Below, piece after piece: positions 29 through 64,000 of a stretch of 64,000 nucleotides of DNA. The notes beneath the pieces are model-generated. The model saw only the letters and a program-made list of their open reading frames with translations, was not told where the DNA came from and searched no databases. Within the stretch, counting starts at the first letter, position 1. Every line of letters begins with the position of its first letter. Source of the stretch: Puccinia triticina (lineage: Eukaryota > Basidiomycota > Pucciniomycetes > Pucciniales > Pucciniaceae). The position numbers were made by a program, and so were the translations under genes. The DNA is taken from positions 4,190,001 through 4,254,000 of the forward strand of contig NC_070559.1 of NCBI RefSeq assembly GCF_026914185.1, written 5' to 3'.

Positions 29-1447
29 GTGGTGAACAGAAATTTTGACTCCATTGATCTGGTGACGGAAAGCGGCTGTGTCCTCTTACACAGTGAATTC
101 AACCCTCTGAACAACACTTGGCCCCTACCGCTTCCCATTCAAGCTGTTGTTTCCCCTTCCTCAACTCCAATTGCTCCACCAGCTTGTAATGACGTGTTTC
201 AGCCAGTTCTTGCAAATACAATCTTCAAATCTCCCAACCTTGTTGAGCACAGTCATTTCACATGGAATCCTGAAAAACTGACTAAAGATGAGAAAACATT
301 GCTTTTCTGGCACAGACTTTTTGGACATGCAAGTTTGAGAAAGATCAGAAGACTAGTGAAACTCCAACTGGGCTATGGCCTCCCGACCACAATGCCAAAA
401 GGATCCATCAAATGTCCTGTTTGTTCCATCTGCAAGGCAACACAGACTTCTGCTATGGGAACCACGAAATGGTGTGTTGAGAAACTTTCCGTGGTGTGTG
501 TTGATCTCATGGGTCCCTTCAAAACACCTACTATGACTGGGGGACAATACGCACTCACAATGCGTGACGTGTTCACCTCATACAGTGAAGTCTGCATTCT
601 CAAAGCTAAGAGTGGGGCTGCCAAAATGCTTATGCAGACTGTATCTTGGTGGGAAACCCAGGTTAGATCTAAGGTGAAGATACTACGCTCAGACAATGGC
701 AGCAAATTTGATTCCAAAGTCCTTGGTAAGTACCTCACCAACAAGAGCATTGTAGCAGAGAGCTCCTTACCTTATCCCCACTTCCAGAATGGCGCGGCCA
801 AAAGGTACAATTGGGCTGTTTTGGACATGGGCCGGAGCATCTTGTACAACAGCGAGTTACAAGGAATTTTGGGGATACACCTTCCAATGGGCTGCTGGAC
901 CCTCAACCGGATTCCAAACCGCATCACTGGAGATAAGACACCATACAAGTTTTTCTTTGGCGATAAACCTCAGCTGGATCGTAGACGTGTGTTTGGTTCT
1001 CAGGCTTATATTCTGGTTGCTCCGGAAAAACAAAAGAAACTTGACAACAGGGCAGTCAAAGGTCTAGTTGTTGGTCACCTTCCAGAGTCAAAGGGTTGGA
1101 TGTTTTGGTTGCCAAAGAACAAGAAGCTAGTATCATCAGCGTGGGCCAATTTTGGGAGGAACACGCTCCCACCGGCAGACAAGAACGACCTCAATGCAGC
1201 AGTAAACAAACCTGCGGAATCATCACCTCCTCAAGAATCAATTCCGAACGCAAAGCAATTGATTCTCAATGACTTCAGCCAAGAAAAACTGGTTGACCTG
1301 CAGGAAGAACTAGTTGGCCAATGCCAACAGGATTGCACTGATGTCAGCCTTAGAGTCAACTCAGCTGACCTAAAGTCTGCCTTTTTCTACTTTTTACATA
1401 TGAATTACTTCATATCTTTTTCATCTTATGAAATAACCTTGTTTTGA
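29..1447 (+). pseudogene. Ty1/Copia integrase region, inactive
   Basis: Middle part of a Copia polyprotein, running in from before the window. A GAG-pre-integrase/zinc-binding segment is seen around residues 90-137 (FWHRLFGHAS, later CPVCSIC). The integrase core follows with the first catalytic Asp in VCVDLMGPF and the second in LRSDNGSKF. The third catalytic position is damaged: the usual Glu of the QNG-x-A-E motif reads Lys here (FQNGAAKRYN). Coding similarity ends near 1380 and the frame then runs into unrelated AT-rich sequence and stops. The reverse transcriptase resumes near 2310, so the element is interrupted by about 0.9 kb. The assignment to Copia comes from the order integrase, RT, RNase H. 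It is a dead copy. Confidence 0.88.
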
Positions 1448-2309: not shown

Positions 2310-3845
2310 AGGCTCACAGCTGATGACTTGGAGGCGGTGCCGTCCACTTTCAAGGCAGCCATGCGATCCCCTGAAGCAGAACATTGGAAAGCTTCTGTGA
2401 ACACCGAGCTTGACAATCTGAAGCAAAAGCAAGTATGGACTGTGCGGAAACTGCCGACTAATTGTAGGAGGTTAGGAGCGAAGTGGGTTTTTGCAAAGAA
2501 GAAGAACCCTGATGGATTGGTGAAATACAAAGCAAGATATGTTGCAAAAGGGTTTAACCAGAAAGAAGGGACCAAATTTGCACACACTTTTGCTCCAACG
2601 GCCACTTTCACATCTATGCGGATCCTATTGTTGATTGCGGCTAAGAATGACTGGCCAATTTACAATTTCAATTTTTTGGCTGCATACCTGAATGCACCTA
2701 TTGATGAAGAAGTCTGGGTGCAAGCCCCAGAAAGTTTAGATGTGAACTTTGATGAAGCTTGTCTCCTACAGCAGGTGCTCTACGGCACAAAGCAAGCGGC
2801 ACGTTGTTGGTGGAAACACCTCAGTAGTATGCTGGCAGATCTTGGCTACACCTCAAGCTACTACGACTCTAGCGTCTATACCCTTAGTCTTAGAGAATAC
2901 CGGTCCTTTATTTGGGTGCATGTGGAAAATGGAATTGTCACTGGGTCCTCAGATGCGGCCCTGAAATTATTAGAAACACAGTTGAAGGGGAGCCTGGAAA
3001 TTAAATGGAAAAAGGGGCTAACAAGCATGGTGGGTATGAAGATTACCAGGAACAAGGACAGTTTTGAACTCACACAACCTCTTCTCATCGAGAAGATCCT
3101 CAAGGAGCACTGGGAATGGATGGTGTGACTTGTCATCCAACACCTTTACCTGAAGGCTACACCGCCAATACGGAACCCAATGCACCAGGTATCAACAGAT
3201 CAGATTTCTTATCAACAATTGGGGGCCTGAGTTATGTTGCGGTAGGAACACAAACGGACATTGCATACAGCGTGAATTATCTAGCGCCCTTCTCCAGCAA
3301 ACCGTCAAATCTACACTGGAAAGGCCTACAACACTTGCTCGGATACCTGGAGGAAACCAAGATCACTCCGCTTAGAATACATCCATGCAAGTCAACCAAC
3401 ACACCTGTCGAATGTTTCTTTGACACAAATTGGGGGGGACCTAACTCAAGGTCCACTTATGGAGTTATGGTCCGGCCATATGGAGCACCCGTGATGTGGG
3501 TTTCACGGAGGTTAGTCACAGTAGCCAGCTCAACCTGTCAAGCTGAGTACATGGCACTCAGTCATGCAACACGGCATTCACTTTGGATAAGGAATCTATT
3601 GTATGATATAAATGGCACGAATTTCCCGGTGACAATATTCTGTGATAATCAATCAGCAGTAAATATTGGTTCTGAAGACACATCAAACAAGCGGACTCAT
3701 CACATTGAACGGGAATTTTACATCACCAATCAAGCAATGTAAGAGAAGAAAACCAACATCAGGTGGATCCCGGGGATGGACCAGATTGCGGATGTTCTCA
3801 CCAAGGCTCTAGGGAAAACGGCTCATTCAAAATGCAGTACAATTA
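2310..3845 (+). pseudogene. Ty1/Copia reverse transcriptase and RNase H, inactive
   Basis: RVT_2-type reverse transcriptase from about 2310 (AEHWKASVNTELDNLKQ, GAKWVFAKKKNPDG, YKARYVAKGFNQKEG). The YVDD-like active site expected near 2920 reads VHVENGIVTG, so both catalytic aspartates are lost. A frameshift near 3115 moves the RNase H part (DTNWGG at about 3425, STCQAEYMAL, FCDNQSAVNI) into another frame. A TAA at 3740-3742 then interrupts the C-terminus, which continues with typical Copia residues (IRWIPGMDQIADVLTKALG) to about 3864. This is the second half of the element whose integrase lies at 29-1447. It can no longer encode an active polyprotein. Confidence 0.9.
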
Positions 3846-18694: not shown

Positions 18695-21067
18695 GAGTAG
18701 TTCCACAACGTCCAGGTCTACCTCGACGACATACTGATTTACTCGGCTAGTGAAGAAGAACATGTTAAACATGTAGAATCAGTTCTGTCAGTGCTTCGGC
18801 GCGAGGATTTGAAGTGCAGCGGCGCAAAATGCGCATTCGGCTTACGGGAAATCCAATATGTGGGCCACATCATTGGCTTCAACTCAATACGGCCGATGGA
18901 GGAGAAGCTGAGCTGTGTCCGTGAATGGCCGAGACCAAGAACGGTTTTCAATGTCCGGTCGTTTCTGGGGTTATGTGGCTTCTACAGGCGGTACGTCAAA
19001 GGTTTCGCCAAGATCGCCGCGCCGTTACATGATTTGACGGCAGGCGGAGTAACCAAACGGCAGCCGGTTGCGTGGTTGCCGAAGCAAGAATCAGCCTTTC
19101 AACAGCTGAAAGAAGCACTAGTAAGTGCACCTATCCTTTTGATACCTGACGTCCTGAAAAGGTTTGTTATGGAGACCGACGCGTCCAATTTCGCTGTCGG
19201 AGCGGTCCTGTTGCAAGACGGGGAGGATTCGTTGCTTCATCCCGTAGCGTTCAAATCGAGTAAGCTTAATAAAGCTCAGGTCAACTACCCCGCCCAAGAA
19301 CGGGAGTTATTAGCTATTATCCACGCGTGGAGGAAGTGGCACATCTACCTTGATGGAGCAGTAGAAACAACGGTAGTTTATACTGACCACGCGTCGCTGA
19401 CTTACCTAAAGACCCAAGTCCTGCCAACGAAGCGCCTGCTCAGGTGGATCGAAGAATTTGCCGAGATGGATATCAACATCCGGTACAAGAAGGGAGCCGA
19501 TAATGTGGTTCCCGACGCCCTCTCGCGTAGAAGCGACCTTGCGTTGCTAGAAGAAGTCACGGGAGAGCTTCATGAGTCCGACTGGCCCTTGATAATCCCG
19601 TACCTTTTAGAAGAAAAGGACTTACCAGACGGTATTCCAGAACGCCTAGTGATACGGGTGAAGGAAAACATCGACTTGTTTGAATACGATCCTAACGACG
19701 AGACCTTGATATATCTGGGCCGTCAAGGATTAGCAGAAAGGTCGCCGTTTGTTGCTTTCGCGCATTGGTTTTACCTATTGAGATCCGTCCACGACGATCT
19801 TGGCCATTGTGGCAGAGATTGTACCTTGCAAATCCTTCGGGGGCGAGGGTGGTGGCCTAAGAGATACGACGATGTACAGAGTTACATTCGTACGTGCGAG
19901 TCGTGCCAAATACACAAAAGACCGCATGCAAACCAAGAAACCGGCCTTCAAAAGCCGTTACCGGCGGTATTACCGTTCAAACGGTGGTCTTTGGATCTTA
20001 TTCAGATGCCGGAGAGCCACAAGAACCACTATAAGTGGATCCTCACTGCCATTGACCATTGCACGTCGTGGCCAGTAGCAGTTCCGCTGAAAGACGCATC
20101 AGCGGCAGAACTGGCGCAAGCTATCTTCGACCAGGTGATTACGCCTTTTGGAGCACCTCGCGAATTTCTCACAGATCGCGGCTCAAACTACTTGTCCGCA
20201 GGGTTTCAGAAATTCCTGGCTGCCGCCGGGATGAAACCAATTAAGACTTCCGGGTACCACCCACAAACCAATGGGAAGTCGGAAAGATTCAATGGAATCT
20301 TAGAAGCGGCTTTGTTCCGCATGAATAAGACCGGGGACCCTTCCAAATGGGAGGATGTCTTGCCGGCAGCTTTGTTTTCGGCTTGAATCCACGTTAGCGA
20401 TAGCAGTGGTTTCTCGCCGTTTGAGCTTCTCTATGGCGTAAAGCCTAGGTTGCCTCAAGATTGACGACGAATGATCGCCGCAGAACCGGCCCTTCCGGGA
20501 CACGAAGAATCAAAGGCACGCATTGAAGCGCTTAATAAGACCAGAACAACGGCCACAGGCAATTCAGCTGTGCGGGCGTTGCAGAACAAAGAGGCTTTCA
20601 ATGAGAAAACGTCGTTTGCCCGAGACCTGAAAAGTCTTGTAGAAGGGCAGTCCGTAAAGCTGCGCAATGAAAAACACACCAAGGGCCAACCGAGGTGGTT
20701 CGGACCTTTCACGGTCAAGAAAGTCCTCGAAAACAATGCTTACATTGTTGAAGACCATGAGGCGGTCGAGTACCCCAGGCCAGTTGATGGCAACAGTCTT
20801 AAGCCAGTGTACCTGCGTTCGTTGATCTCCAACGATATGTGGGCGGCCCCGCCCGCCATAGTACAGCGGGAGAAGCGAGCCGACGCCAGAGTGGCGAAAG
20901 CTTTACTAAAGAAAACAAGAGCTTTAACAAAAGCTAAGAATACGCCTTTGGCTTCGGCCGTTGCGCAAACTCAGAGTTCCGAGACTCACTTGGCCCGGGC
21001 ACCGGGAAGAAGACTCCGGCTTCGGCTGGGACCTCCGCCGGCAGGGTCCGGGACGGCCCCTGTCTAG
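18695..21067 (+). pseudogene. Ty3/Gypsy pol (RT end, RNase H, integrase), 5' truncated
   Basis: Starts within reverse transcriptase just before the catalytic motif VQVYLDDILIY. It continues through the RT thumb (VGHIIGFNSIRPMEEK), RNase H (METDASNFAVGAVLLQDG, YTDHASLTYL, VVPDALSRR), the integrase zinc-binding region (GHCGRDCTLQ, TCESCQIHKR) and the integrase core (WSLDLIQMPE, LTDRGSNYLS, HPQTNGKSERFNG). The C-terminal part has an SH3-like fold region (GQSVKLRNEKHTKGQPRWFG). The frame is kept throughout but broken by TGA at 20384-20386 and 20462-20464. Both stand where Arg is expected, so CGA-to-TGA changes are likely. Gag, protease and most of RT are missing upstream. Not functional. Confidence 0.93.
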
Positions 21068-36182: not shown

Positions 36183-36191
36183 CATATTGCT
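36183..36191. repeat. 9-bp target-site duplication, left
   Basis: CATATTGCT directly before CTAACTTAAC. The identical 9-mer follows GTTAAGTTAG at 43293-43301. Confidence 0.88.
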
Positions 36192-36660
36192 CTAACTTAA
36201 CACAAGCCCCTCTTTGGAGGGCCTGGTACAGCCTGGCTGGCGCGAAGCGCCCCTCGCGAAGCGAGCCTCCGAAGGAGGGACTTGCGCCGTATACCCCCCT
36301 ACCCGCCCTACTCTTTTTGGCATTTGGCAGGGCATTATCTCACAATTGCTAGAAAAGCTGATCCACTCAACCTTTTTTTTTCTTGTTTAGTGTTCCAAGA
36401 CCATCTGTTTCTGCTCTACTACCCTGCCAAGTCTCAGCCTTGCACCGGATGTAAGAGTGGTTTTATTTTATTTTTTAAACCTGAAAACTGCTTTGAAGCG
36501 CTGCTGTTGGCTGATTATGGTTTTACATATCTTCTCCAACCTTCCAATCCACACCTCAAATACAGGGCACGTGACCTCCAAGCTCTTCTCAGCCAGTCGG
36601 CGGCAGTAAAGCAAGGCCTAAACACAACCAGACTTGCCCATCACACCCGGTCTTGTACAT

Positions 36661-36925
36661 AGCACCAGCTCAAAGTTTCATGAGCCTACAAGCCCGGGGT
36701 TTTCCTATCTTTCTGAAGATGTATCATCCCTTGAATCAAGCCTAGCTTCTCGATTCTAGGGCTTGTTGTGACGTAGCCTTGCTTCCAACTGGACTTGCCA
36801 GTCTCGTAGCATCAGCTCAAAGTTTCATGAGCCTACACGCCCGGGGTTTTCCTATCTTTGTGAATATCATCCCTTGAATCAAGCCTAGCGTCTCGATTCT
36901 AGGGCTTGTTGTGACGTAGTCTTCC
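36661..36925. repeat. 147-bp tandem repeat upstream of the DUF6589-like gene
   Basis: Two copies starting at 36661 and 36808 (AGC[A]YCAGCTCAAAGTTTCATGAG), containing GCCCGGGGTTTTCCTATC and GATTCTAGGGCTTGTTGTGACGTAG. The second copy lacks the last 35 bases. A looser match (ACCCGGGGTTTGCC) follows at 37029. Confidence 0.88.
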
Positions 36926-37108
36926 GATTGTCTTGAGTGTAGTGATCTTGGCATTGTACTATCTAGGCTTCCACCCGACTTTGGCCGTCCAAGTTTCAAG
37001 AAAATGGCGAGATACGGGCAAACTCACACCCGGGGTTTGCCATGTTGTTTCGCCTCATGCTCCTCATGGACAATTTGTGTCTGATTCAAGTGGTCTCTCA
37101 ATAAATAA

Positions 37109-37118
37109 GGGTATAAAA
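37109..37118 (+). promoter_or_regulatory. TATA-like box
   Basis: GGTATAAAATACC about 105 bp before the ATG of the DUF6589-like gene. It is a good TATA-box match at a plausible distance. Confidence 0.5.
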
Positions 37119-37218
37119 TACCTTGTCTTGCTCCAAAGATCCCCTTCCTCGTGTTTCCACATCCACACAATTCTTGCGCACTACATACACTTCTAGTACC
37201 AATTGCCTTTAGCCATCA

Positions 37219-40103
37219 ATGGATTCTGTCAGACGCCCTCGACTTAGCATGGCTGAGAAACTCAGCTCCATCTGTGCGCATATGGAAACTCTCCAAATGA
37301 ACCCAAAGACCTTCTTAGAAGCCTTCTTGAATCATCCCAATGAGAATTTTGCCTTTTGTCGCCGCTTCTGGGGCACCGGACATGGTTGGGACTCATCAAG
37401 AAGACTTCTTGAGACCATCAGGTCTTTGGTATGTTCGCACAGGGAAGGCCAATCCTACTGGGAAGATTTCATCTTAGACCAGGTGGATGTTCCTTTTTTT
37501 TCTTCTATCTCGGAAACAACCACTGACTAATGTTTTTCCCTATCTCAGGCCGTGAATATTGTTGTGGCCCAGCGTCCTCCAAGTGGCATTTATCCAAACG
37601 GGTCATATATAAACTCCAATCGAGTTACGGAAGAATTTTTCACTCACAAGCAGCATTTCGCACGTAACAATGCTCTGACTACCGATATGCCCTTTCTCTA
37701 TCGGTTACTCTGCTCCAAACTTTTGGGACCAAATATTCCGGACCCAAATGATCCTGTTGATCTAGCTGATGTGGATGTTGATGATCCCACTGGCCTGGGA
37801 ATCGACCAACCTGGTTTGCATCCAATTGACCCCTCAGTTCACAATGTCAGTGGGGGGACAGTTATAACCGAAGAAGATGTCAGTGCTGTTGATGGAACTC
37901 ACCTTGAAGTCAACGCGGATCCGGCTGCCCGGAGAAAAGCAAGGGCTGAAACGGTTAGCACTCACTCTTGTGGATCCTACATAGTTCTTTGGCTTATGGG
38001 TGATCTGTCAACAGATAGCGCGCACAGTCTGTGCCATGGTGGCCTTTGGGACCAATCGCCGGCATAATGCATGCCAATTGAGCAATTCGCTGCTCCTCTT
38101 GGCATCAGGAGTATCCGAGCGAGTTAGTAGCTACCTCAATTATATTGGATTGGCATCCTCACGCAAGACAGCACATGCTGGCCTCCAAGCGCTGGGGCGA
38201 GAGGCTGAACGGAAGATCATAGGTAGATTTGCTTTGGAGACCAATCCGCTGATTGCTCCAATTATATGTTACGATAACTTGGATTTTCAACAAAAGGTCC
38301 ACATGAAGTCCGTTGGGCATTCTAGTGTCATGTTCCATGGGACTTGGGCATATATCCATTCACCTTCCCCCAAGTTACTATCCACCTTGAACCCGGAGAA
38401 TCTGACTACTGAAGCGCTGAACAATGCACTACATGCCGCATCAAAGCTCACCATCACTCCGCAGATGATCGCTCCGCCTCTTGAAAGCTCTTTGCATTTT
38501 GAGGCCTCACTCAAGGCTCAGATCACCCGCGTGGTCCTACAATACGTTGCCCGACCTGTGGATACTAATGTGAAACTTTATCAACATTCCCCACCTGTTG
38601 ATCCTTTGAAGCCCGAGGACCCCAACATTGCTATGATGAAACTTATGATAGCCTCGGACAACTCGGCGCAGGGGGTCGGGGAGGTCTTCACCGGCCTCAT
38701 TCAACAATCGGGCTTGACCCCAGCTGCTTTTCACTCGCGACTTCAGATCATTGAGGGAGACTTGGGCTCCTGCAACTTGTTTGACAGCCTACGGAAGCAA
38801 CGAGCCCCAGGAGTGACAATGGAAAGCAGCCTTGATAACGCCCTAGCAATCCCAGGCGCCTCTCATACCCTCTGGAACATCGCGCAATCTATCTTCTTGG
38901 CTCACTGGGGCAATGAGAAGCGCAGTCGAGATACTGGCGCTTGGCGCACCCTTCACGCTTTGGGGGTACCTGCCGAAAAGCCAGTGACCAAGAAGGACTT
39001 CAACTTAATGCTTTCGCATATCGAGAAGATACACGAAGTCACCCTGCTATATTTGACTTTGTGAGGTATTTTCATCCATATTTCCTTTGAAAAAAGTCAA
39101 CCGATGTATTCTTTGGGTTACCAGGGTGGTAATGGGGAAAGACGATCGCCCCTTAGATGAAAAACTCATCCCGCTGAGGTCAGATGCTATCAAAAGCCTT
39201 GTTGACATTACGTACAACCGATACTGCTCAGGAGAGGCACGTCGCTCGGATTTAGCGACTACATCTCCAACGTTCTCCAACATGCTCTTGCGCATACGTG
39301 ATTTTTCTACAATTATTGAAGCTAATCGCGCGATGAGGGCCGGGGATCCCGGCCGCCTGATATTAATGTGGCAACGCTGGTCTGTGATGAGCCAGGCAAT
39401 GCCAAAGCTGCCTCATTATTCGAAGCATCTACCCAAGCTGGTTCTGCTGTTGCAGGAGATCCTGCCCAAAGATCTGGCGAAAATTGTGAAAAGCTCAATG
39501 CTTATATCTCCAACAGGAAGACACGAGCACTTTGTTGCAACTGATTTCTACCTTGAAGTCCAGAACTATTGGCTGAAGTACTTCTTCAACCATTCTGGCA
39601 TTGGCACCAACATTGAACGGTTAAAAGATGTATTCTCCATCAACATTCCAACGGTGCGTTCACAAATCTTAAATTTTCACACTAGTATGTACCTCAGTAG
39701 CTGACACCCAAATCATTTTTAGTTACGATATCTCTTGCAATCATTAAAGCTTGAGTCTGGCTGTCGGCTTGTCCAGCAATCTCACAAGAACAGGCTATCT
39801 AACCTCTCAATCAATTCTTATCTCCGCATGGCTCGTTCGGAGAACCTTGCTCGCCCTGAGGACCACAATGGGTTCAAACCCGAAGCAACATCAGATTTCT
39901 ATGCCTTGGGAATTGTCAAGCTCCAAAATCAATTTCGCACTGCAGGTCTGGACAATTTCAAGCCTATCAGCCCAGGTATAATGCAGTTGAATGAGCAAAA
40001 TCAAGAAAGTAACAATCAGATGCAGGCCGAAGTTGAAGCTAACGAAAGCGGAAATGAACTCAGTGACCAATCAAATGAATCCAGCGAAGAAGGATCCAAT
40101 TGA
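37219..40103 (+). CDS. DUF6589-like protein, candidate mobility protein of the 7.1-kb element
   Basis: Exons 37219-37482, 37549-37953, 38015-39060, 39125-39653 and 39723-40103. All introns are short GT-AG and the phase is continuous, giving an intact 874-aa protein. The N-terminus (1-88) is a small helical domain (FLEAFLNHPNENFAFCRRFW). Residues about 140-223 are acidic and Pro-rich. From about 224 the sequence matches my recollection of the basidiomycete DUF6589 family, with YDNLDFQQKVH (Asp310), a Gly-Thr motif (MFHGTWAYI), IIEGDLGS (Asp472), IPGASHTLWNIAQSIFLAHW and GAWRTLHALGV. The C-terminus is acidic (ESGNELSDQSNESSEEG). DUF6589 has no established function. The spacing of conserved Asp residues is compatible with an RNase H-like nuclease, but this is speculation. 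Its stop lies 3 bp from the stop of the opposing helicase gene. Confidence 0.82.
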
Positions 40104-40106
40104 TGT

Positions 40107-42818
40107 TCACTCACCCATGCTTTCTCCAGACCCTTGCGCATGTACATCCTTAAATTCCTCCAATGCAACCCGATCTCCTTCCTCCTTCGCCACCTGTTTG
40201 CAATTTCTCTGTTTTTGGAGGAGGCGATTCAGATGGGCCTTCTTTTTGTTATTCACCCTAGTCTCTCGGCGTAGTCGCCGCTCTTCTGCCTTCCGATTCT
40301 CTTCTTCAAGGCGTGCTTCTTCTCTTGCAAGTACCTTTTCACGTCTCTCAGCCGCTTTCTTGGCGGCCTCTTGCATTGCAGCTTGTGCTTTGACCTCGCG
40401 AGCTGCCATACGGGCCTCTGCTTTAGCCTTTCTTGCGGCGAGTTTGCGTGCCTCTTCAATTGCCACTTTTGCAGCCCGTGCTTGGGATTTGGCTATTTTC
40501 TCGGCTTCCTTCCTGGCGGCGTCCTCCTTTTCTTTGATGGCCTTGAGTTCAGCCCTTCCGGCGGCGCGCGCAAGGGCTTGAGATTCTAGTAGAGCTATCC
40601 GGTCCGCTTCTATTGCTTCCTCCTCTGCATGGATCTCTCGGCGTAATCGATGATACTTCTCTTCCATATACTTTTTGTGATCCCTGCGCTGTTGAAGGTG
40701 CGCTTGGTGAAATTCCCCATCAAACCATGATTTCAGCGAATCTTTGAGCCAGTTAACCTGACCTGAGAAGTATTGGCCTCCCATCAACTTTTCCAAAAAA
40801 ATCAGTTGCAGGTCGTGGTCCTCAGATGACTGGACCTGATCCAAAGAGCCCACAATCATAGTAGCCTGAGAGTAACCGAAGAAAGTAGAGGGTACATGTT
40901 CGTGAGATTCAGAACCTGGCAGTGAGTTGAAGAAGCCTCTGAAGCCTTCTACTAAATGATTGACCAAGTGTTGTTGGACCTCAGGAGGTAAATTGCAAGT
41001 CCCCTTAGTCGCATTTGGCTTGCGTTTTCGGGTCATAGTTTGGATGGTGGTATCTTTGATTATACCAAAAGGATTGGCAAGCATGGCATCGAAATTGTCG
41101 ATGTTCATTTGCTGGACCTTATCTAGGATTTCCTTTGATGCCTCAGGCAAACAGTTCGAACATTCACAAGTCTTGAAAAGGGCGCGAATTTCTCTTTCCT
41201 TCTCGGCCAGATAGTTGGGGTCCTTTGCACAGATGGGAATGTACCCAATCCTGATTGCACACAGGTTTCAGTCACCACAAAAATTACGAGAGAGTGAATG
41301 AGGGAATGGGCTGAACTTATTATCTACACTTGTGACCACCCTCAAGCACAGTTTGGTGACGGCCAAGGCATCCATGCGATCATCGTCATCTTGGGATAAG
41401 GGATTTTCGAAATCGGACTCTGAATTCTTCCCCTTTTTCCGAGTTGGCTCCATGAATAAGAAAGCTAATCCCGGCTTCCCATCCCTCCCGCAACGGCCAA
41501 TCATCTGAACAATTGATGAGGGGTCACCGCGGCCCATGTGAATGACACACCGGACACGTTTAAGGTTTTGGCCAAGCCCTAATGCCATGGTAGCCGATAC
41601 AATGGGAAACTTCCCTTCACAAAAATCCTTAACAGTAGTCGCCTTATCCTCGTCCGCCGTAACTGCGTGGAACCGACGGATAAATTCATCATGTGGATCG
41701 TACTCGTGCTTACGTGTCTTGCGTGCTTGATTGACAACCTTCATCACCTGAAAAGTGAGGTTTCGAGACCCAGAATAGATCAAGGTAGGGACTGTATCTT
41801 TGGCGGCGGTATACGTATGAGGAGCAAACATCTTCAGGAGATCATCACAGGATGCAAGCGTAAACTCCATTCGCACTTGGATGATTCGTATCTCTGGTCG
41901 TGTCAGTTCTCCGTCCAGCATAGTGATATCCTCAGGCTGTAACATGAGGTTCGAGATAATAGATTTGACGGCTATTGGTCGACAGGTGGCCGATAGTAAG
42001 AGGAGGGGTACCTTGTTGGTGGCTGTCAATCGGGTCCCAAGGTGACCGTAAGAGATTCGGAATGGTCCACGGTCGTCGTGTCGAGCAAATGAGTTGAGTC
42101 CTTTGGTTTGTCTAGACGCTACCAGTCCCCACAAGTACACCATGTGTGCCTCGTCCACAACAATTAGAGCCAACTTGTTTTGAAATTTATCACTGAAGAA
42201 CATCTCGGTGAATAGGGGGCTGTTGAGAAATACTTCTGGACTCTAATCAATCAAACAAATCAATCAGAGAGTCTGTCAGTCTTACTACAATTTAATAATT
42301 ACATCAAAAGATAAGACAGACCAGGTAGACAAAACTATAATCTCCATTCTTTATCTTTTTGATGATGTTGAAATTCATCGTCATCTTGTTTAAGTTGACT
42401 GCCGTAATGTTCACCAGCTGCTTCTCCCTCACCTGTCGCCCCGAGAAAGTAAATTTGTAACATGTTCAGCTAGCATAAACGTGCAAAGAAATAATATGTC
42501 TAATATAATTACCTGATCATCCCCGAGAGAATCCAGTGGATTCAACACAAGGACAATGACTTGGCTTGAAAACAGCTTAAAATACATCTCCGAGATCCTG
42601 GTCTTCCCAAAGCCAGTGCCAGCTCGAACAAAACAGTTTTCCCCACGAGCAAGGGCAGACACAGTTTGTACCTGTAGAGACTTGGGTTCATCATGATAAA
42701 AGTCCTTTGAAACCGATCTGATGTAGCTAGAGAGTAGTTCATCGCTAAGGCCTGTAATCTTTTTCGGCAGTGAGACAGCTTGTTTTTTGACGGAAGTGAT
42801 ATCGGCGTTGTTTTCCAT
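40107..42818 (-). CDS. RecQ-like DNA helicase with long coiled-coil tail
   Basis: Minus-strand exons 42513-42818, 42322-42432, 41317-42242 and 40107-41250, all GT-AG and in frame, give 828 aa. Superfamily 2 helicase motifs: Walker A AGTGFGKT (66-73), DEAH box VVDEAHMVYLWG (DEAH at 169-172), motif III LLLSATC (about 220-226) and motif VI QMIGRCGRDG (385-394), typical of RecQ. A Cys cluster (TCECSNC, about 474-480) follows. The last 230 residues are a highly charged Ala/Glu/Lys/Arg coiled coil rich in EEAR, RKAE and AAREV repeats. The ATG at 42818 was chosen; the frame opens 27 bases upstream without an ATG. RecQ enzymes unwind DNA 3'-5'. Fungi also have subtelomeric RecQ paralogues, but here the gene sits inside a TIR-bounded unit. 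Confidence 0.88.
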
Positions 42819-43292
42819 TGCGAGTTGGCCGAGAACTCTGTTCAATAAGTCGGAGGAAGGTTGTGTTCCTCTTCTGGGTTATTGGACAACCTATTGGCCC
42901 CATAGATGAGGCTTGGAATATTTTTTACTCAGAGCAATTGTGCATCATTACCTATATACATAGTGGAAAGCCACCGGTCACAGTACAGGAAGTGGTATCA
43001 TGAGACTCGAGCGCTTCAAAATTTACCATTGTGAAGATAAAAAATGGGGAGAAAATCCGGCATCCCTGATAAGTATAGTACAAGACGCAGGAGAAGCACG
43101 CGGTCACATGGCTCCGCAGAAGTTTTATCCTATTCCTTAAGAGTGAGGAGGTACAAGCAATAATACAAAAAAAAGCAAAAAAACGAAAAAGAGTAGGCTA
43201 AGTACTAGGATGTAGTGTATAAGTACCTCCTTTGGAGGGTCCCTGCGGGACGGCGTCCCCCCTCCACAAACGGAGGGACTTAGTTAAGTTAG

Positions 43293-43301
43293 CATATTGC
43301 T
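43293..43301. repeat. 9-bp target-site duplication, right
   Basis: CATATTGCT directly after GTTAAGTTAG, identical to 36183-36191. Confidence 0.88.
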
Positions 43302-46119: not shown

Positions 46120-46153
46120 TTAGGGGTTAGGGGTTAGGGGTTAGGGGTTAGGG
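46120..46153. repeat. interstitial TTAGGGG array
   Basis: Four TTAGGGG heptamers followed by TTAGGG. This resembles, but is not identical to, the TTAGGG telomere repeat usual in fungi. GGGGGTTAGGGGGCGGG precedes it. Confidence 0.95.
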
Positions 46154-50711: not shown

Positions 50712-51027
50712 TGGACCAGAAGTCTGATTTTTTTTATTTGTGGTGTATATGTATGATGCGTGCAACTCTGGCGCATGCTAATCAAGATTTATTTCTATCG
50801 CCTGCTTACTTTATTGAGTACAGTTACTGTTGTGGTTAGATTAGATAAGAAAGAAGGAAAAAACAAATGGTGCAAGCAATTAAGAGATCTGTTGTAGACA
50901 TGTTTATCTAATTACAGATAACTGAAGAAAAAGGTGACAACTTACAAGCCAGAGGAAACACATTGGCTGCAGCTTTGATGATAGTGGCAACTTTGATGAT
51001 GGTAGTTTCAATGATGATGGATGATTA

Positions 51028-51184
51028 TGGTATTCAAAATTGCATATGCCCCTGTTTACATAAAATCATAAAGCCCATTTTGGCTGGGAGATGTCAGCGT
51101 GCATAAAACTTAAAGTGACATCTCCCAGCCAAAATTGCAGTTTATGATTTTATGTAAAAAAATCTTATGCAATTTTGAATACCA
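51028..51184. mobile_element. 157-bp hairpin MITE with TA duplication
   Basis: Begins TGGTATTCAAAATTGCATA and ends with the complement, and nearly the whole element folds back on itself (GGCTGGGAGATGTCA with TGACATCTCCCAGCC). It is flanked by TA on both sides (51026-51027 and 51185-51186). The TA duplication and terminal sequence fit a Tc1/mariner-derived MITE. Confidence 0.85.
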
Positions 51185-51899
51185 TAGATGATGGCAGCTT
51201 TGATGATGAATGATGATAGTGGCTTGGGTGAGTCTCCCTAATATTTGTCAACAAACCACAAGTTTCCTTCAATTCTCAACCTACTTCATCTTGAAAGTCA
51301 TCATTTAGGCCCCATTTGGCAGGGCCCAGTGTGATATGTGGTAATAAGCTCAATTAAGGTTTATGAACCTTACTGGGATTATTACTGGGCTTAGGTAATC
51401 TTAAAGGGCCATTTGGGACAGTCAATGTGATATTGCAAGGCAAGTCTGTCTGTTTGGTGTGCCCCTCAAAATCAAGTCAGGTCCAGCGCTCCTCTTGAGT
51501 CCAATGCCACAATACCCCCACCAAGCTCCACAAACCTCAACAACATCTGTGTCTTGCCTCACTCCCAAGACAAACACCAGCAGAAAGTCATCAAGCTTAT
51601 CATCTCATGGTAAGCGGAGGAGGGATTGAAGGCTTGGTAAATTGGGGTAGGAGGCTTTGACATTAAGGGAGGTTTCTTGTGTCTGGGTGCCATGAGGGGG
51701 CTTTAAAGTTAAAAATCAGGCCGTGCAGATCCCAGGAATCAGGAAAAAATGGACTTGGAACCTCTCCTGCGGACCTGATTTCCTTCTTTGAAAAAGGCTC
51801 CAGGAGAAGGAAAAAGGTCAAGACACCCCCTCAAGGGTGTTCTCACCTATCTCCGATTACATCTGCATGCCGGCCACTCAACCAGTCTGTGATTATGTA

Positions 51900-53245: not shown

Positions 53246-56200
53246 TCACTCCACTGTCACCACATTGCCTTTGGTGGCACCACGTGCCTTCATCCTGCCC
53301 TTAGGATTATCCTTCATCTTTTCCATATGTTTGTGGAGAGCCAGAGGTTCAATCTTGCCGTTCTTTGAGTAGAACAACAACACCATCCCTCTCCCTACCA
53401 ATTTTGCATTGAGTTTGTGTCTCTTGGCCAAGACTACGTCTCGGCCAAAGCTGAAAGTCCGTTTGACATCAACGGTTGTTGCTATACATAATTAATGAAA
53501 CAATTGATTAGTTTTGTGTTTTGATACCTGTGCAGAAAAAATTAATCTTACTGGGGCAGCACATGACATCAAGTGCCATCTGTAAGAGTCCATGGTGGTT
53601 ATTTCCGCTACGTTTTTGTTCAGCCCACCACTTGAGCCCATTGATTGGTTCGCCGTCTTCCAAATAAAGGCCGCCGGATAGCCATATGTCCACAGGATCT
53701 GATAGCGCTTCGGAAGATCTTGCGACAGCAGCAGCGCCAAGCCCGGCCAGAACACCAGTTTGTGGCTGGTGGAAACTTTGGTCAGTTGAATTGCTTAGTG
53801 TGAGAGATTACAAGATTTCGTTTACCTTTATTGGTCATTTCCTGGGTGGTTTTGGTGCGGTAATTGTGTTTGAAGGCTTATACCATGTATTGTACATCTC
53901 GCGAGTGAGATCTATTTCCTCACTAATCCATGACTTAGGCCATTTGGCCAGCTTAAAGTATTCATCCTTGAACAACAGATGGAGAACTGAATGGTCAAAA
54001 GATATTATGTTAGTTACAAAACATGTTAGAAAAAATCCAATTAGACTCAAAGAAAAGGCCTACCCATTGCTATTCTGTAGATTGGTGCGCAGTCAGTGAG
54101 CAAATTAGTGGTTTAACATTAAGCGGACCGACAGGAACACCACAAAAAAAAATTGGCAGCATTTCCCCCAGTTGTAAAATAAAATTACAGGTACAATATG
54201 ACCTGGACCACTTGGCTCTTTAAGCAATTGGCGCCGAGCAAGAGCCAAGTGGTGAACTCAACTACCCCAGACGCCGTATCCTTTTATACTTTTCCCCCCA
54301 ACCTCAACTGACCACGACTTCCGCCTCGCCTTATTCCTTTTCCGACCCTATTATGTTTCTCAACATCAAGTTACTATTTTCCCCTCCATTGTCTGTGTGC
54401 GTTGCAAGAATGTGAAGCTGATGATGTCCTCCAAATCCGGAAAACTGAGACTATTTCTGTTTCCCGGGTTGGTATGCTATTCCTTCCGAGGCCTACACGT
54501 TGCCGGAATACTACCAATTCCGGGATCCTGAGACAGTGTCCCGGGCTACAATGTCTCTCCGGGCCCCGCAATTTCCAGAATAAGATGTTCGCCAATTCCG
54601 GGAAGCTGAGACCGTGTCCCAGAATAGATGTGCCAATATTGATACCAACATTATGTCTTGTTTCCAGTCCGTTGGGTTGAAGCTTTCCTGTAAAGATCAA
54701 TTCCTGATGGAGCGCAAGATATTTTCGACTTCGCCGCGATCAGTGCCCGCTTGGAGAAGAATGAAATGATGTTTACTCCGGAGCAGCGAGTCTTCTTCAA
54801 TGGTGTGATGTATGCGGTCAATAACCAAGTGCCACAAACATTCTACTTGGATGGACCTGGCGGGACCGGTAAAACTTTTCTTCTCGACAGTTTAATTGAT
54901 GGTTTGACAATCAACCAGAAGAAATGTGTGCTTGTTACATCGACGGGGGTGGCAGCGCTCCTGCTCAACGGAGGTCAAACGGCTCACTCTGCTTTCAAGC
55001 TCCCATTAACAATAAACAATGAGACCTTGTGCAGCATTGATGCCTCGACAAAATGCGGTCGTGAGATGATCACAGCCGACATCATTTTTTGGGACGAGAT
55101 TGTGACGATGCACCTCCAAGCTATCCAAGCCGTCGACATATCACTGCAACTGTTGACAAATAATCCACACCCATTTGGGGGAAAGTGTGTTGTTTTTCTG
55201 GGTGACCTTTGTCAAACTCTTCCCGTCGTTGGGTTGGAAGAGTGTCCGCGGTCTTGTCACGCCACTCTAAAATCTTTGTCCTTATGGGGAGCAGTCAAAA
55301 AGCACGCTTTAAACCTTAACATGAGGCTGAGGCAAAGCAAGGACACTGAAGCGGTCAAGAACTACTTGATCTCGGCGAAGTTGCAATGGCGCGAAACTGA
55401 TGAAAAGTAGAACAAAACAAATTCATTATCCAAAAAATTAAAGGAAGACAAAAGTAATCAACTAACCTTTGCAAGAGATCGACGACATGACTCTGACGTA
55501 TAAACATCATCATCCTTTTCATCTTCAACATCTTTGACATCAGCCAGCGTAAGCTCGTCGTCCTCTGCGAATTCGCCATCGGGGCGCTCAGAAATATTGG
55601 CAGGAAGCTCCTCCTCGTCGTCATCAGTGGAGCTACTATTGTCTTCCTCTTCATGAAGCCTGAAAATGCAATCACACATGTAACAATCAGCGGGTAGAAA
55701 TCAAAGACAAAATGAAATGATGTCAGAATAATTAAGCTTGCCTTTCAAGGAGATTTTGCGGTTCCTCCTCATCATTGGATTCCTCATACTCACCAGCTCT
55801 AGGGGAGCTTTTTTTGTTACGCGCAAAGGGTTGGAGTATTGCCTTTACAATAAGGTTGAGGATATGTGCAAAGCACCTTATCCACTGCGGCTCGCCTTGG
55901 AAACATTTCCACAAAAGTTTTTCTAACTCAACAATCATTGTCCCGTTGTTTGCCGCGTTGTTGGAAACAATACCACAAATCTAATGAGTGTAATCAGCAG
56001 GTTAGATCAGATTCTCAGATAATAGAATGTACAAAATCAAAAGAAAAGTTATCATACCTGATTTTTCAATCTAAACTTCTCAACAATGAATTCAACCATG
56101 CGCGCTAAGTATTCACCTGTATGCCTTTCCTTAAGCTGGACAAAGTCCAGGGGCATTGCATCCAATTCAATCCTGCCGGCCCCATCATCCAAAAGTTGGT

Positions 56201-59299: not shown

Positions 59300-60382
59300 G
59301 TTCATTCTTGAACGTTGGGTGGCAAAAGTGCATGCAAGTCACATTGTACAACCTGCTTGATGTTGTTTGAAAGTTGGTGCCCAAGAAAAAGCCTTGAACA
59401 TCAACTTTTGAAAGTACATGTAAGTCATGCATGGCCAACTTGGGATCAAATCACACCTGGCCAACATTGAAACCCCCTATTATGTAGTCTCCGGTAGCCA
59501 TTTGTCTTTCTGTTGACTGGCCTTCATACCAAAGTACAACCTATTGTCCTTGCCTTTGATGCGCTCCTTCGTATCCTTGAGTATTTTTGTTACTTTCCTG
59601 GAGGGGCATTGTTCTTACTGTGATCAGGTTGGAGGGGCTGAGGCGAGCTAGTGATAGTAGATACATCTCTTTTGGATCTTCGAGAGCGGTTTATCGAACT
59701 TTTTGAATCCGGTCTGGTAGAGCTCAAAGGCGAGTTGAGCTGAGAGTCGCGACATCTTTTGGCAGCTTCGAGAGCTGTTTGTAGAGCGCTTTGAGTCCGG
59801 CCCTACCTGGGAGATTTGATGAGGCTGAAAGCGGGATTGCTCGGCAGGCATAGCAGCTTGACCATCCTCCTCAGGCTGGCAAGAAATGCGTGGTGGCCAA
59901 CGAGGCGCAGCAGCCCGTAGGCACTTGAACCATCGGTGGACCGGTTGGTCGTCCGCCTCAGACTTGACGAGGATCAATTCCTGCTGTGATCGAGCAAGGG
60001 GCATGCCATACGCGGTCGGCTTGCTGGCAGGTCGTCGAGTCGGGGACGAGTCTGGTTCCGATTGCGAGTCTGCAAGCGCGGCGTCTTCCGAGTAAAGCAA
60101 GTGGCCGAGTGCACCGATCTCCCGGGGAAGGGGAGTGGGGCCCCGCAGACATGCTCATCGATGTCCATCCCCGGCGACCCGCCGGCCTGCCCGATCCGGC
60201 GGTCTTCGGCCAGCAGCCTCGATGTGACTCGTTCCTTTGTCAACGCAGCACACATTCAAAAGCCCCCTCGTCCCCGCCCACACTTTGCTGCATTCTCCAC
60301 GACCACACACACACACGCACACGCACACCCTCCACCGGCCAACCCAGCCAAGAACCCCACCAGGACTAGAATACATAGGACG
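59300..60382. other. interval ahead of the farnesyltransferase gene
   Basis: 59300-59640 has no gene. A GC-rich minus-strand frame of 150 codons (59648-60100) has no recognisable domain or ATG at its start, and I do not call it. 60100-60382 contains the promoter and 5' UTR of the farnesyltransferase gene, including a CACACACGCACACGCACAC stretch near 60305. Confidence 0.45.
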
Positions 60383-62064
60383 ATGGCCGCAGACGCTCCA
60401 TCCTCCGACCCCGTGGCGCCGACGGTCGAACAAGACAAGCAAAAGGAAGAAGAGCAGAGAACTGAAGAAGAGGCCACCACTGCAGACGAGAAGAAGCCTG
60501 AAGACGAGAAGAAGAAGGAGCAAGAAGAGAACGAGGAGCCGAGCATAGTCGACCAAGAGGAGCTCTGGAAAGACATCACGCCGATCCCGCAGGCGGATGC
60601 CGAGCGGCCGATGGTCGTGATTGCGTACACGCCGGAGTACCGCAAGGCGATGAGCCTGTTCCGGGCGGTGCTGGCGAAGAACGAGTTCTCGGACCGGGCG
60701 CTCAAGCTGACCAGCCTCATCCTCCAATACAACATCGCCCACTACACCGTCTGGTCCGTCTCTCTTTTCTCTCTGCTCGTCATGGTCTGCTGTGGAGAGG
60801 GACTGACCGGGGCGGTTTTCTGTGTCCATGGGTCCGTCCACACAGGCATTATCGCTCCCAGATCCTCAAACACCTCCACACCACCGATCCCGAGGGCCAG
60901 CACATCCAACAAGAGCTGGCCATGCTGAACAAGTACATGGGCGACATGCGCAAGTCCTACCAAGCCTGGTCAGCCCTCTCTGCTTCTCCCCCGACACACA
61001 CACACACACACACACAGCCCATCGGGCAAACCTGACGTTCGGGAAAACTGACTTTGGGTATTGGGGGGATTGTAGGCAGCACCGCGCACTGATGGTCGAG
61101 ATGCTCAAAGACGTGTCCAAGGAAATCGCCTTCGTGGACCAAGTGCTCAAAGCGGATGCCAAGAACTACCAGACATGGACATAGTGAGCCCCTCCTCCCC
61201 TCGACGTCCCCTGCCGCACCGCTGACCGCTTCCATGTCTCCCCGTCGTCATCGAAGTCGACAGAGCCTGTTGTGTCAATACAACCAGCCGGAGATGTGGG
61301 CCGGCGAGCTGCCCACAATCGAGCGTCAGTCCTCCCCCCTCCCCCTCCCAAAAGAAAAATGCTGACTGGAGGCGGGGATGAGCAGGCATGTTAGCGGAGG
61401 ACATCCACAACAACTCGGTGTGGAACCACCGCTTCTTCGTCGTCTTCGACACCTTCCCGCTCCACACGCCCGGCCTAACGAGCGCCCAGTTCGCGGAGAC
61501 GGTGGATCGGGAGGTGGGGTTCGTGAAGGACCAGCTGTTGAAGGCGCCCAACAACCCGAGCGCCTGGAACTTCCTGCGCGGGTAAATCCCGTCTCTCTCT
61601 CTCTGCTGAATGCCTGCAGAAACTGACACGTGCTTGCCCCGATGATTGGAAAAGGGTGCTCAAGCGGGCCAAGAAGCCGTTCGACTCCCTCGAGAGCTTC
61701 GTGCTCCCTCTCACCAAGCCCGCCGCCCAGCTCGACGCCGAGCACGGCTGGCCGGCCGGGCTCAACAGACGTGCAAGTCTGCCCGCGCCGCCGGCGGTCG
61801 AGTTCCTGGCGGACATCTACGCCGGGTCGGGCGCGACCACTGCGCAAGCCTTAGACGTCAGTCCCTCTCCCCTTTTCTCTCTCGCCTCACATCCTGGAGC
61901 TTACCCGCTCCTCGTCGGTTTCCGAAATCCCCCCAAAAAAACAGTTGTATGGTTGGTTGGCCGACACACTCGACCCGATCCACAAAGGCTACTGGCTCTT
62001 CCGCTCCCAAAGAGCCCGCGCCGGCCCTCCCCCAGCGGCCCAGCCCGAGGTGGCGGCCCAGTGA
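60383..62064 (+). CDS. RAM2: protein farnesyltransferase/geranylgeranyltransferase I alpha subunit
   Basis: Seven exons: 60383-60753, 60846-60968, 61076-61183, 61257-61324, 61386-61581, 61655-61856 and 61945-62064. All are GT-AG and in frame, giving 395 aa. The first 55 residues are an acidic, Lys/Glu-rich extension. Then come the alpha-subunit hallmarks WKDITPIPQ, YTPEYRKAMSLFRAVL, ALKLTSLILQYNIAHYTVW and the repeated helical-hairpin motifs NYQTWTYRQSLL, NNSVWNHRFFVVF and NPSAWNFLRGVL. These PPTA repeats wrap around the beta subunit. The enzyme adds farnesyl or geranylgeranyl groups to CaaX proteins such as Ras. It is longer than yeast Ram2 because of the N-terminal tail. It appears intact. 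Confidence 0.95.
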
Positions 62065-62639
62065 GCCGGCCGGTCGACGGCCTTCCGCCCAACTGGGCTC
62101 TCATCACTCCCCATCTGTTCGGTTGGCATCTGTAATCGGTTCTGCTTTATAGGCCATGTCTTATTTTCGGTTTGTGTGCCGCCCATGTATAATGTACTAC
62201 TTGTTCCTCATCGTTCCGCGGGTCATGGTCCGTCCAAGAAGGATGTTCTCGTGATTTGTGTATCGTCTACACATTTAGTTCTCGTTGTTTCCCGCCTCAG
62301 TCGGTGCCTCTTTTTGCTTGGAATGTGCTCCAATCCGTTACCCCGTCCATGTATAATCGTTAGAACTCTACATTGCGGTGACAAAAGGAATCATGGGATA
62401 TGCAGCAGTACAATATACATTAAGACAACGAGCACCACGAGGATGCATGTTGTACACACTGAGGAACAAGCCACCCACAAACACGTGTTTTTTTCAAGTA
62501 AGCAGGTCGTGAGATATCGATGAGAGACTGATACAGTTCGTGGCCGGAGGCGTGGACATGGCAAAGCGATGAAAGAGCAGCGCTACAACAGCAGGGAAAA
62601 AGGGGGAAAAGCTAGACAGGAAATCATGATGGGAATAGG
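62065..62639. other. intergenic region between convergent genes
   Basis: 3' flanks of the farnesyltransferase gene and the opposing minus-strand gene. No additional gene recognised. Confidence 0.5.
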
Positions 62640-63960
62640 TTAGAAGCGTTGGATGAGCGAGGTGAGCCGGATGCCGGACATCATCATCAACTCGTCGATC
62701 GAGAAATGGTCCTGATAGTTCCTGCAAACAGCCCCAGCGATCAGCGGGGTGAGGGCGGGGAGGAAGAGAGGGGCGAGGATACGCACGTCATCTGGTGGAT
62801 GAATTTGCACTGGACCTGGATCTCCTTGACGGCGTCCCTGACCCTGGGGAGGCGAGATGGGGAGCTCTTGATCGCGCAGCTGGGTCTGCGGAAGGGCGAA
62901 CAGGAGATGTCGGAGGAGGAGGAAGAGGTGGTGGTGGTGGTGGAGCGGACGGAGTTGGCCTTCGCCAGCAGGCCGCCGGCCATCAGCCGGTACTTGATCG
63001 GCTTGCGCTTGATCCGCTTCTCTTCCCTCACCGGCTCGAACACCAGCTCGCCGCCTAGTACACAGACACACATCCCTCAGCATCCGCCGCTCTCTCAGAG
63101 ACACGCGTCGAGACTCACCGAGTTGCTGCGGGTCGCCCGCCCACTGCCACGGCATCCGCCACGCATTCTGTGCCCGCGTCCACAGCCGCTATCAACACGC
63201 TGATGTAGTGGAGTGTAAGGAGAGAGAGACGCACGTAGAGCACTTTGGAGAGGAAGGCCAGCTTGGACTCGTACACGAGCGGCTCGTGGTGAGCGGCGGC
63301 CCGGGCGCCGGGCAGGGCGGGATAGGCGAGCGGGTGGATGTGGAAGCTGGCCGGCGGGTGCTGCTGCTGCGGGGCCTGCTGGAGCAGCTTGACGTCCTTG
63401 AGCTTCTGCATGCCCAGCAGCTTGTACACTTTCTGGTCTTTGGAGAGGTCGGTGTAGATCGGGAAGGGGCAGTTCAAGATGGCTATGGTTTCACACCATC
63501 AGTCTTGGGTATGGATGGGGGGGGGGGGGGGGGGGGGGGGCAGAGGGGAGAGACGCACTGCGGTAGCTGTCGATCAGCTGGTAGTTCCCGTTCCCGATCA
63601 CGACCACCTTGACCCCGTTGGCCCGGATCCAATGGCCGGCCTGCCGCTCGTCGTGGCCGTCGGCCGGGGCCGAGCGCTTCGAGAGGCTCGACACACTCGG
63701 CGGGTTCTGTCTGTGGGCGGCGAGTGCGGGCACAAGCTCGCCGTTGGCGATCTTGGAGAGCCGCTTGATGTACCGCTGCGAATAGCCCGACCTGTCTTGC
63801 GCAGAGAGAGGTCAAGAGATGGTCTATGGGGGTGGTAGATCAGGGGGGGCACGACTGACCGGAAGTGGCGGATGAAGATGACGAGGGTCTTGAAGTCCCG
63901 GTCGATGAGCTCCTCGAGCTTGACGGCCTTTCCGGCTCCGTCGACGAGCTCGGCCTGCAT
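62640..63960 (-). CDS. AhpC/TSA-2-like thioredoxin-fold protein, 5' end outside or near window edge
   Basis: Minus-strand exons 63860-63960 (from the first ATG seen), 63559-63791, 63235-63482, 63119-63167, 62787-63054 and 62640-62721, in continuous phase, give at least 326 aa. Motifs fit the peroxiredoxin-like AhpC-TSA_2 (PRXL2) family: LVIFIRHFRSGYSQRYIKRL, KVVVIGNGNYQLIDSYR, CPFPIYTDLSKDQKVYKLLG, WAGDPQQLGGELVFEP and CKFIHQMTNYQDHFSIDEL. The CxxC-like site expected after FRHF reads SGYS, so both redox cysteines are Ser. The insertion of about 50 residues before CKFIHQ is Ser/Arg-rich. A CCCCAG acceptor at 63979-63984 suggests that the exon starts before the ATG and that the true start is beyond 64000. 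It is tail to tail with RAM2. Confidence 0.82.
63519..63540. repeat. poly-G run in an intron
   Basis: An uninterrupted run of 22 or so G, on the minus strand a poly-C tract inside the intron between the exons at 63559-63791 and 63235-63482. Its length may be uncertain in the assembly. Confidence 0.9.
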
Positions 63961-64000
63961 GGCCTGCTGGAGATGGATCTGGGGGGAGGAGGGGCTGGGC

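What the first reader, a model, noticed from the sequence alone, without database searches (positions are those of the whole stretch)
36183..43301. A 7.1-kb transposon-like unit carrying a DUF6589-like gene and a RecQ-like helicase gene tail to tail
Seen directly: inverted ends CTAACTTAAC/GTTAAGTTAG, an exact 9-bp flanking direct repeat (CATATTGCT), and two intact spliced genes whose stop codons are 3 bp apart. All nine exons keep frame and the helicase keeps its catalytic motifs, so the copy looks young. DUF6589 has no assigned function and RecQ genes in fungi are usually discussed as subtelomeric. The structure argues that the pair is the coding part of a DNA transposon family and that DUF6589 may be its transposase or an essential partner. 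I cannot recall such a family being described.
Basis: partly seen in the sequence, partly recalled or inferred. Interest (0 to 1): 0.95.

Follow-up and report, generated by a model that had tools for sequence, protein, structure and literature searches.

The report
Real DNA transposon: DUF6589 transposase plus RecQ
A 7.1-kb stretch of a rust-fungus genome is a genuine jumping gene whose two genes are most likely a DNA cut-and-join enzyme, filed until now as a protein of unknown function, and a DNA-unwinding helicase; it probably belongs to a transposon lineage (AcademH) described in 2020.

Summary
Window 36192-43292 is a 7101-bp element with 10-bp inverted ends and an exact 9-bp target duplication. 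It carries a five-exon DUF6589 gene and a four-exon RecQ-family helicase gene, tail to tail, stops 3 bp apart. Of 40 related stretches fetched from the same genome, 33 reach both termini; 21 of these have exact 9-bp duplications, all different. One clean empty site was found. Of 12 other DUF6589 loci examined, 11 have the same convergent helicase and 6 are bounded by exact 9-bp duplications with C[TG]A[AG]CTT[AG]A-type ends. Three of those six are 98.6-98.9% identical and sit at different sites, so the whole two-gene unit moves. Predicted structures of two DUF6589 homologues have an RNase H-like transposase core (nearest: Hermes, P element, ISCth4, RAG1); conserved Asp310, Asp472 and Glu716 are the inferred catalytic triad. 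'No such family described' is probably wrong: 9/10-bp duplications, an encoded helicase and fungal hosts are what papers report for AcademH (Kojima 2020, not readable here). Homology to Academ transposases could not be tested. The useful new point is that Pfam DUF6589 looks like a DDE transposase domain.

The parts
36183..36191 (+). left copy of the 9-bp target-site duplication, CATATTGCT
36192..36201 (+). left terminal inverted repeat CTAACTTAAC
   Evidence: 10 of 10 match to the reverse complement of 43283-43292; like ends in other copies
36208..36221 (+). left subterminal short inverted repeat CCCTC-TTTG-GAGGG
   Evidence: read by eye from the sequence; a role in transposase binding is a guess
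36660..36923 (+). leader with a direct duplication of about 145 bp (two registers, 93% and 97%) upstream of the DUF6589 gene
   Evidence: families D1 and D2
37219..37482 (+). DUF6589 transposase gene, exon 1
37549..37953 (+). DUF6589 transposase gene, exon 2
38015..39060 (+). DUF6589 transposase gene, exon 3; inferred catalytic Asp310 and Asp472, and the GxxH motif (Gly504, His507)
39125..39653 (+). DUF6589 transposase gene, exon 4; inferred catalytic Glu716
39723..40103 (+). DUF6589 transposase gene, exon 5 and stop
40107..41250 (-). RecQ-family helicase gene, exon 4 (charged C-terminal part) and stop
41317..42242 (-). RecQ-family helicase gene, exon 3 (DEAH box to motif VI)
42322..42432 (-). 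RecQ-family helicase gene, exon 2
42513..42818 (-). RecQ-family helicase gene, exon 1 (Walker A)
43260..43277 (-). right subterminal short inverted repeat CCCTCC-N6-GGAGGG (counterpart of the left one)
   Evidence: read by eye from the sequence
43283..43292 (-). right terminal inverted repeat (GTTAAGTTAG on the + strand)
43293..43301 (+). right copy of the 9-bp target-site duplication, CATATTGCT

Best explanation
The unit is an autonomous-type DNA transposon of a rust fungus, most likely Puccinia triticina. Its DUF6589 protein is an RNase H-fold DDE transposase. It recognises the C[TG]A[AG]CTT[AG]A-type ends, cuts or nicks there, and joins the 3' ends to target DNA at points 9 bp apart; host repair fills the gaps and leaves a 9-bp duplication. 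The convergent RecQ-family helicase is an accessory protein, probably one that unwinds or takes apart the strand-transfer intermediate or helps gap repair. Shown: element boundaries, 9-bp duplications, an empty site, movement of the whole two-gene unit in a sister family, and internally deleted derivatives with the same ends. Predicted: the transposase fold. Inferred: catalysis by Asp310, Asp472 and Glu716, the helicase role, and whether transposition is cut-and-paste or copying. By duplication length, gene content and host it is most likely a member of AcademH, the helicase-encoding lineage of the Academ superfamily.
Confidence: 0.85

Rival explanations
1. A DNA transposon of a separate, undescribed superfamily that merely shares 9-bp duplications and a RecQ helicase with AcademH.
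For: DUF6589 was found in 0 of 5.39 million papers. Its nearest solved fold is hAT Hermes. No listed DUF6589 protein was named Academ by a source.
Against: Duplication length, helicase type and fungal host match published statements on AcademH and fungal Academ.
Confidence: 0.15
2. A KolobokH element: DDE transposase plus RecQ helicase, found only in fungi.
For: KolobokH encodes a RecQ helicase and is fungal; Kolobok-1_CCri of a red alga even has its RecQ gene on the complementary strand (passages in PMC9587614).
Against: Kolobok makes TTAA-specific 4-bp duplications; here they are 9 bp and varied in sequence. [quoted passage not shown] here it is a separate convergent gene.
Confidence: 0.02
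3. DUF6589 is an accessory protein and the true transposase is supplied elsewhere; the gene pair is cargo.
For: No activity was shown. Most copies fetched are non-autonomous, so movement in trans occurs.
Against: Of 12 other DUF6589 loci, 11 keep the same pairing. The protein has a predicted transposase fold with conserved acidic residues. No other ORF of 200 aa or more lies between the ends.
Confidence: 0.06
4. Chance arrangement or segmental duplication of two host genes, as with subtelomeric RecQ helicase genes.
For: RecQ-like genes of fungi are often subtelomeric (passages in PMC4522978).
Against: The window copy lies near 4.2 Mb on a 9.0-Mb contig. Copies are dispersed over many contigs, 21 with their own 9-bp duplication; the left flank is unique.
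Confidence: 0.01

Closest known systems
AcademH (helicase-encoding lineage of the Academ superfamily; Kojima 2020, Mob DNA 11:15; only its title seen, in reference lists)
   Same: Encodes a helicase; 9 or 10 bp TSDs; occurs in fungi including Basidiomycota; fungal Academ copies are said to contain domains such as recQ_fam and to be often annotated as host genes.
   Different: Described as low-copy in fungi, whereas DUF6589 is abundant here. Termini and transposase sequence of AcademH could not be compared.
KolobokH
   Same: Fungal; DDE transposase plus RecQ helicase.
   Different: [quoted passage not shown] here 9-bp duplications and a separate convergent gene.
hAT (Hermes), P element, ISCth4 (IS256 family, recalled), RAG1
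   Same: RNase H-like core interrupted by a helical insertion, by predicted structure. [quoted passage not shown]
   Different: Identity only 7-13% in the structural alignments; hAT usually makes 8-bp duplications; G in place of C/D in the motif.
Subtelomeric RecQ helicase genes of fungi
   Same: Multi-copy RecQ-like helicases.
   Different: Those are telomere-linked; this one is inside a dispersed transposon with inverted ends and duplications.

Membership tests
AcademH | 9 or 10 bp target-site duplications | tested here: met
   21 of 33 copies exact 9 bp, 0 of 33 exact 10 bp; window copy 9 bp; criterion from a passage of PMC10045372
AcademH | encodes a helicase besides the transposase | tested here: met
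   recQ_fam named as an example for fungal Academ
AcademH | DDD/E transposase homologous to Academ transposases | not testable with these tools
   no Academ reference sequence held; Kojima 2020 not held. A DDE-type fold itself is predicted
AcademH | characteristic terminal sequences | not testable with these tools
   AcademH termini were not seen in any passage read; here C[TG]A[AG]CTT[AG]A
AcademH | found in fungi and animals | tested here: inconclusive
   host is a rust fungus; named DUF6589 hits listed were all from rusts (96, 120 listed of 157, 8), but these searches need shared 5-residue words
KolobokH | TTAA 4-bp target-site duplication | tested here: not met
[quoted passage not shown]
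   separate convergent gene
hAT | 8-bp target-site duplications (5-7 bp in hAT5-hAT7) | tested here: not met
   exact 9 bp in 21 of 33, exact 8 bp in 3 of 33; criterion from PMC12730594 passages
hAT | hAT C-terminal dimerisation domain in sequence | tested here: inconclusive
   Pfam scan up to E=10 lists DUF6589 only; distant forms may be missed
Helitron | no TIR, no TSD, HUH/Y1 nuclease | tested here: not met
   TIR and 9-bp TSD present; Pfam lists no HUH domain
DDE (RNase H-like) transposases | RNase H-like fold with three conserved acidic residues in the right strands and helix | tested here: met
   [not shown]

The most novel reading that the evidence does not exclude
DUF6589 defines a DDE transposase superfamily separate from Academ, related at fold level to hAT, P and IS256-type transposases, that works with a RecQ helicase partner encoded in the same element and has expanded in rust fungi into many families with one shared end type and 9-bp duplications.
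Probability: 0.15. Interest if true: 0.75.

Novelty: new member of a known kind. Interest (0 to 1): 0.5.

Why it matters
Rust gene sets hold many DUF6589 'hypothetical proteins': one search listed 96, all named as rust proteins, and a six-frame search found 104 matching stretches, exons counted apart, in this genome alone. They should be treated as likely transposase genes, not host genes. Near-identical two-gene copies at different sites make the question of why a DDE transposon carries a RecQ helicase testable. If the lineage is AcademH, DUF6589 gives a Pfam handle on elements that one paper says are often annotated as host genes.

Tried and rejected
KolobokH was rejected on duplication length and KolobokH's gene layout. 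Helitron was rejected because inverted ends and duplications are present. Subtelomeric RecQ was rejected because copies are dispersed. A sequence search of solved structures with a 49-sequence DUF6589 profile gave 0 matches up to E=10. Foldseek on the 871-residue model gave no match at E<=0.001, so a shorter homologue was folded as well. Three protein searches reached no DUF6589 protein named from outside the rusts among the rows listed. The apparent empty site for L035 was dropped because that copy has no duplication and the alignment has a 4-bp gap; the one for L056 was not counted because it has gaps near the junction. L026 and L027 proved to be partial copies; the window proteins matched L026 only over helicase residues 1-81 and L027 not at all. 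Rows left out of the 33: L049 (no left end found) and L022, L027, L050, L051, L054, L055 (one terminus not reached). No strong target preference was seen in the 21 duplications. The genome-wide helicase search did not complete.

Full report
Observation. The two ends match over 10 of 10 bases and then diverge, and the flanking 9-mer occurs only at the two ends within the 64-kb window (10 of 100 shuffles also had two or more matches, so the 9-mer alone proves little). The exons join in frame through GT-AG introns: five for an 874-aa protein on the + strand and four for an 828-aa protein on the - strand, with stop codons 3 bp apart. Pfam names the first DUF6589 (E=4e-72) and the second a DEAD/Helicase_C protein. 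NCBIfam's best hit for the second is recQ_fam at E=9.9e-34, below that model's cut-off, and its nearest solved relatives by sequence are WRN and RecQ.

Where it is. The window is contig 2, 4,190,001-4,254,000, of a 122.8-Mb, 18-contig genome. The named homologues listed are all rust proteins. I infer Puccinia triticina, haplotype A: one paper's passage gives 3.2 Mb as 2.6% of that haplotype, hence about 123 Mb (PMC12210899, passages). Against this, the top-scoring database protein is only 59% identical and from P. striiformis, so the species name is not proven.

Boundaries. The left flank is unique, but the left end and the right end gave 41 matches each, the window's own included (only the best 40 candidates are scored). 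I fetched 40 related stretches. In 39 both ends could be placed and 33 reach both termini. Of those 33, 21 have an exact 9-bp duplication, all different; 4 have one mismatch; 3 have an exact 8-bp one; 5 have neither. Permuting the flanks 1000 times never gave an exact 9-bp match. L019's flanks, joined, match an uninterrupted repeat in L064 at 118 of 132 positions without a gap across the junction: an empty site. Of the 33, 24 are 600-660 bp long, non-autonomous and MITE-like; 7 are 1.1-1.9 kb; two are other sizes. L018 and L019 keep the window element's first 475 and last 949 bp at 98.5-99.2% identity.

Does the two-gene unit itself move? A Pfam-family search found 104 DUF6589 matches (exons counted apart) in this genome and none in 14 control genomes. 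I fetched 10 of those loci and then 2 more, chosen as likely relatives of one of them. Of the first 10, 9 have a RecQ-like gene downstream in the opposite orientation; L066 has none. Four of the 10 (L058, L059, L062, L065) are bounded by exact 9-bp duplications with ends related to CTAACTTAAC; 6 are not. L062 and the two added loci L068 and L069 are 98.6-98.9% identical over about 6.4-6.6 kb, the identity stops within about two bases of the termini, and each sits in its own 9-bp duplication (CACTGCGCT, CATATTTGT, CCATGGGGT). Helicase matches lie inside that shared stretch. This is direct evidence that the DUF6589-helicase unit transposed in this genome, and the identity suggests recently. Just inside the terminus the left end reads CACAAG in the window copy, L062, L065, L068, L069 and the five non-autonomous copies printed, and the right end reads CTAAG in these; L058 has CTAAG at both ends and L059 differs at both.

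Helicase. Walker A, DEAH, SAT and motif VI are intact by eye. Its role is unknown. One paper's passage says the TSD lengths of AcademH and AcademX seem related to the encoded helicase or nuclease (PMC10045372), which suggests a part in the strand-transfer or repair step. Counts between L062, L068 and L069 suggest constraint on DUF6589 (ratio 0.29-0.52) and not on the helicase (0.88-2.35), but the numbers are small (14-18 and 21-27 changes) and the helicase stretches may include introns.

What is known. DUF6589 occurs in 0 of 5.39 million papers held. The word AcademH occurs in 7 papers, of which I looked into 5: PMC10799480 and PMC10045372 discuss it, PMC12210899 mentions Academ and cites the paper, and in PMC8290104 and PMC9970103 only the reference was found. 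The defining paper (Kojima 2020) is not held and I saw only its title. The passages say that AcademH makes 9 or 10 bp TSDs and occurs as low-copy elements in Basidiomycota, Ascomycota and Mucoromycota. A further paper says that 81% of fungal Academ copies contain recognisable protein domains, for example DEAD and recQ_fam, and that Academs are frequently annotated as host genes (PMC6416283, passages). KolobokH also has RecQ but Kolobok makes TTAA duplications (PMC9587614, passages). On these grounds I file the element as most likely AcademH, with the transposase comparison untested. If so, the finding is a new member of a known kind. What is added is the identification of Pfam DUF6589 as a likely DDE transposase domain and the evidence that the two-gene unit has moved in this genome.

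Noticed in passing
window 29-1447, 2328-3128, 3116-3742: ORFs that read by eye as Copia-type integrase, reverse transcriptase and RNase H pieces of an LTR retrotransposon.
   Followed up: no
window 18791-20386: 531-aa ORF that reads by eye as Gypsy-type RNase H and integrase.
   Followed up: no
window 54751-55410: 219-aa ORF with a Walker A motif that reads by eye as a PIF1-type helicase piece, perhaps from a Helitron.
   Followed up: no
window 46120-46153: TTAGGGG x 4.9, an interstitial telomere-like array, near 21-bp and 159-bp tandem arrays.
   Followed up: no
window 60001-64000: G+C rises to 0.60-0.61, against 0.40-0.53 in the rest of the window.
   Followed up: no
window 51024-51190: Partly self-complementary repeat with relatives in L035 and L057, a candidate for another small transposon.
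   Followed up: partly
L028-L048 (e.g. G000:C10:6685442-6686089): 21 near-uniform non-autonomous elements of 638-651 bp with the same ends; left about 239 bp 85-90% and right about 331 bp 75-78% identical to the window element.
   Followed up: yes
L062, reverse-complement coordinates about 1672-2286: About 630 bp inserted near the left end compared with the otherwise near-identical L068 and L069.
   Followed up: no
L054 and L055 (G000:C5, about 47 kb apart): Two non-autonomous copies with identical flanks, so a segmental duplication.
   Followed up: no
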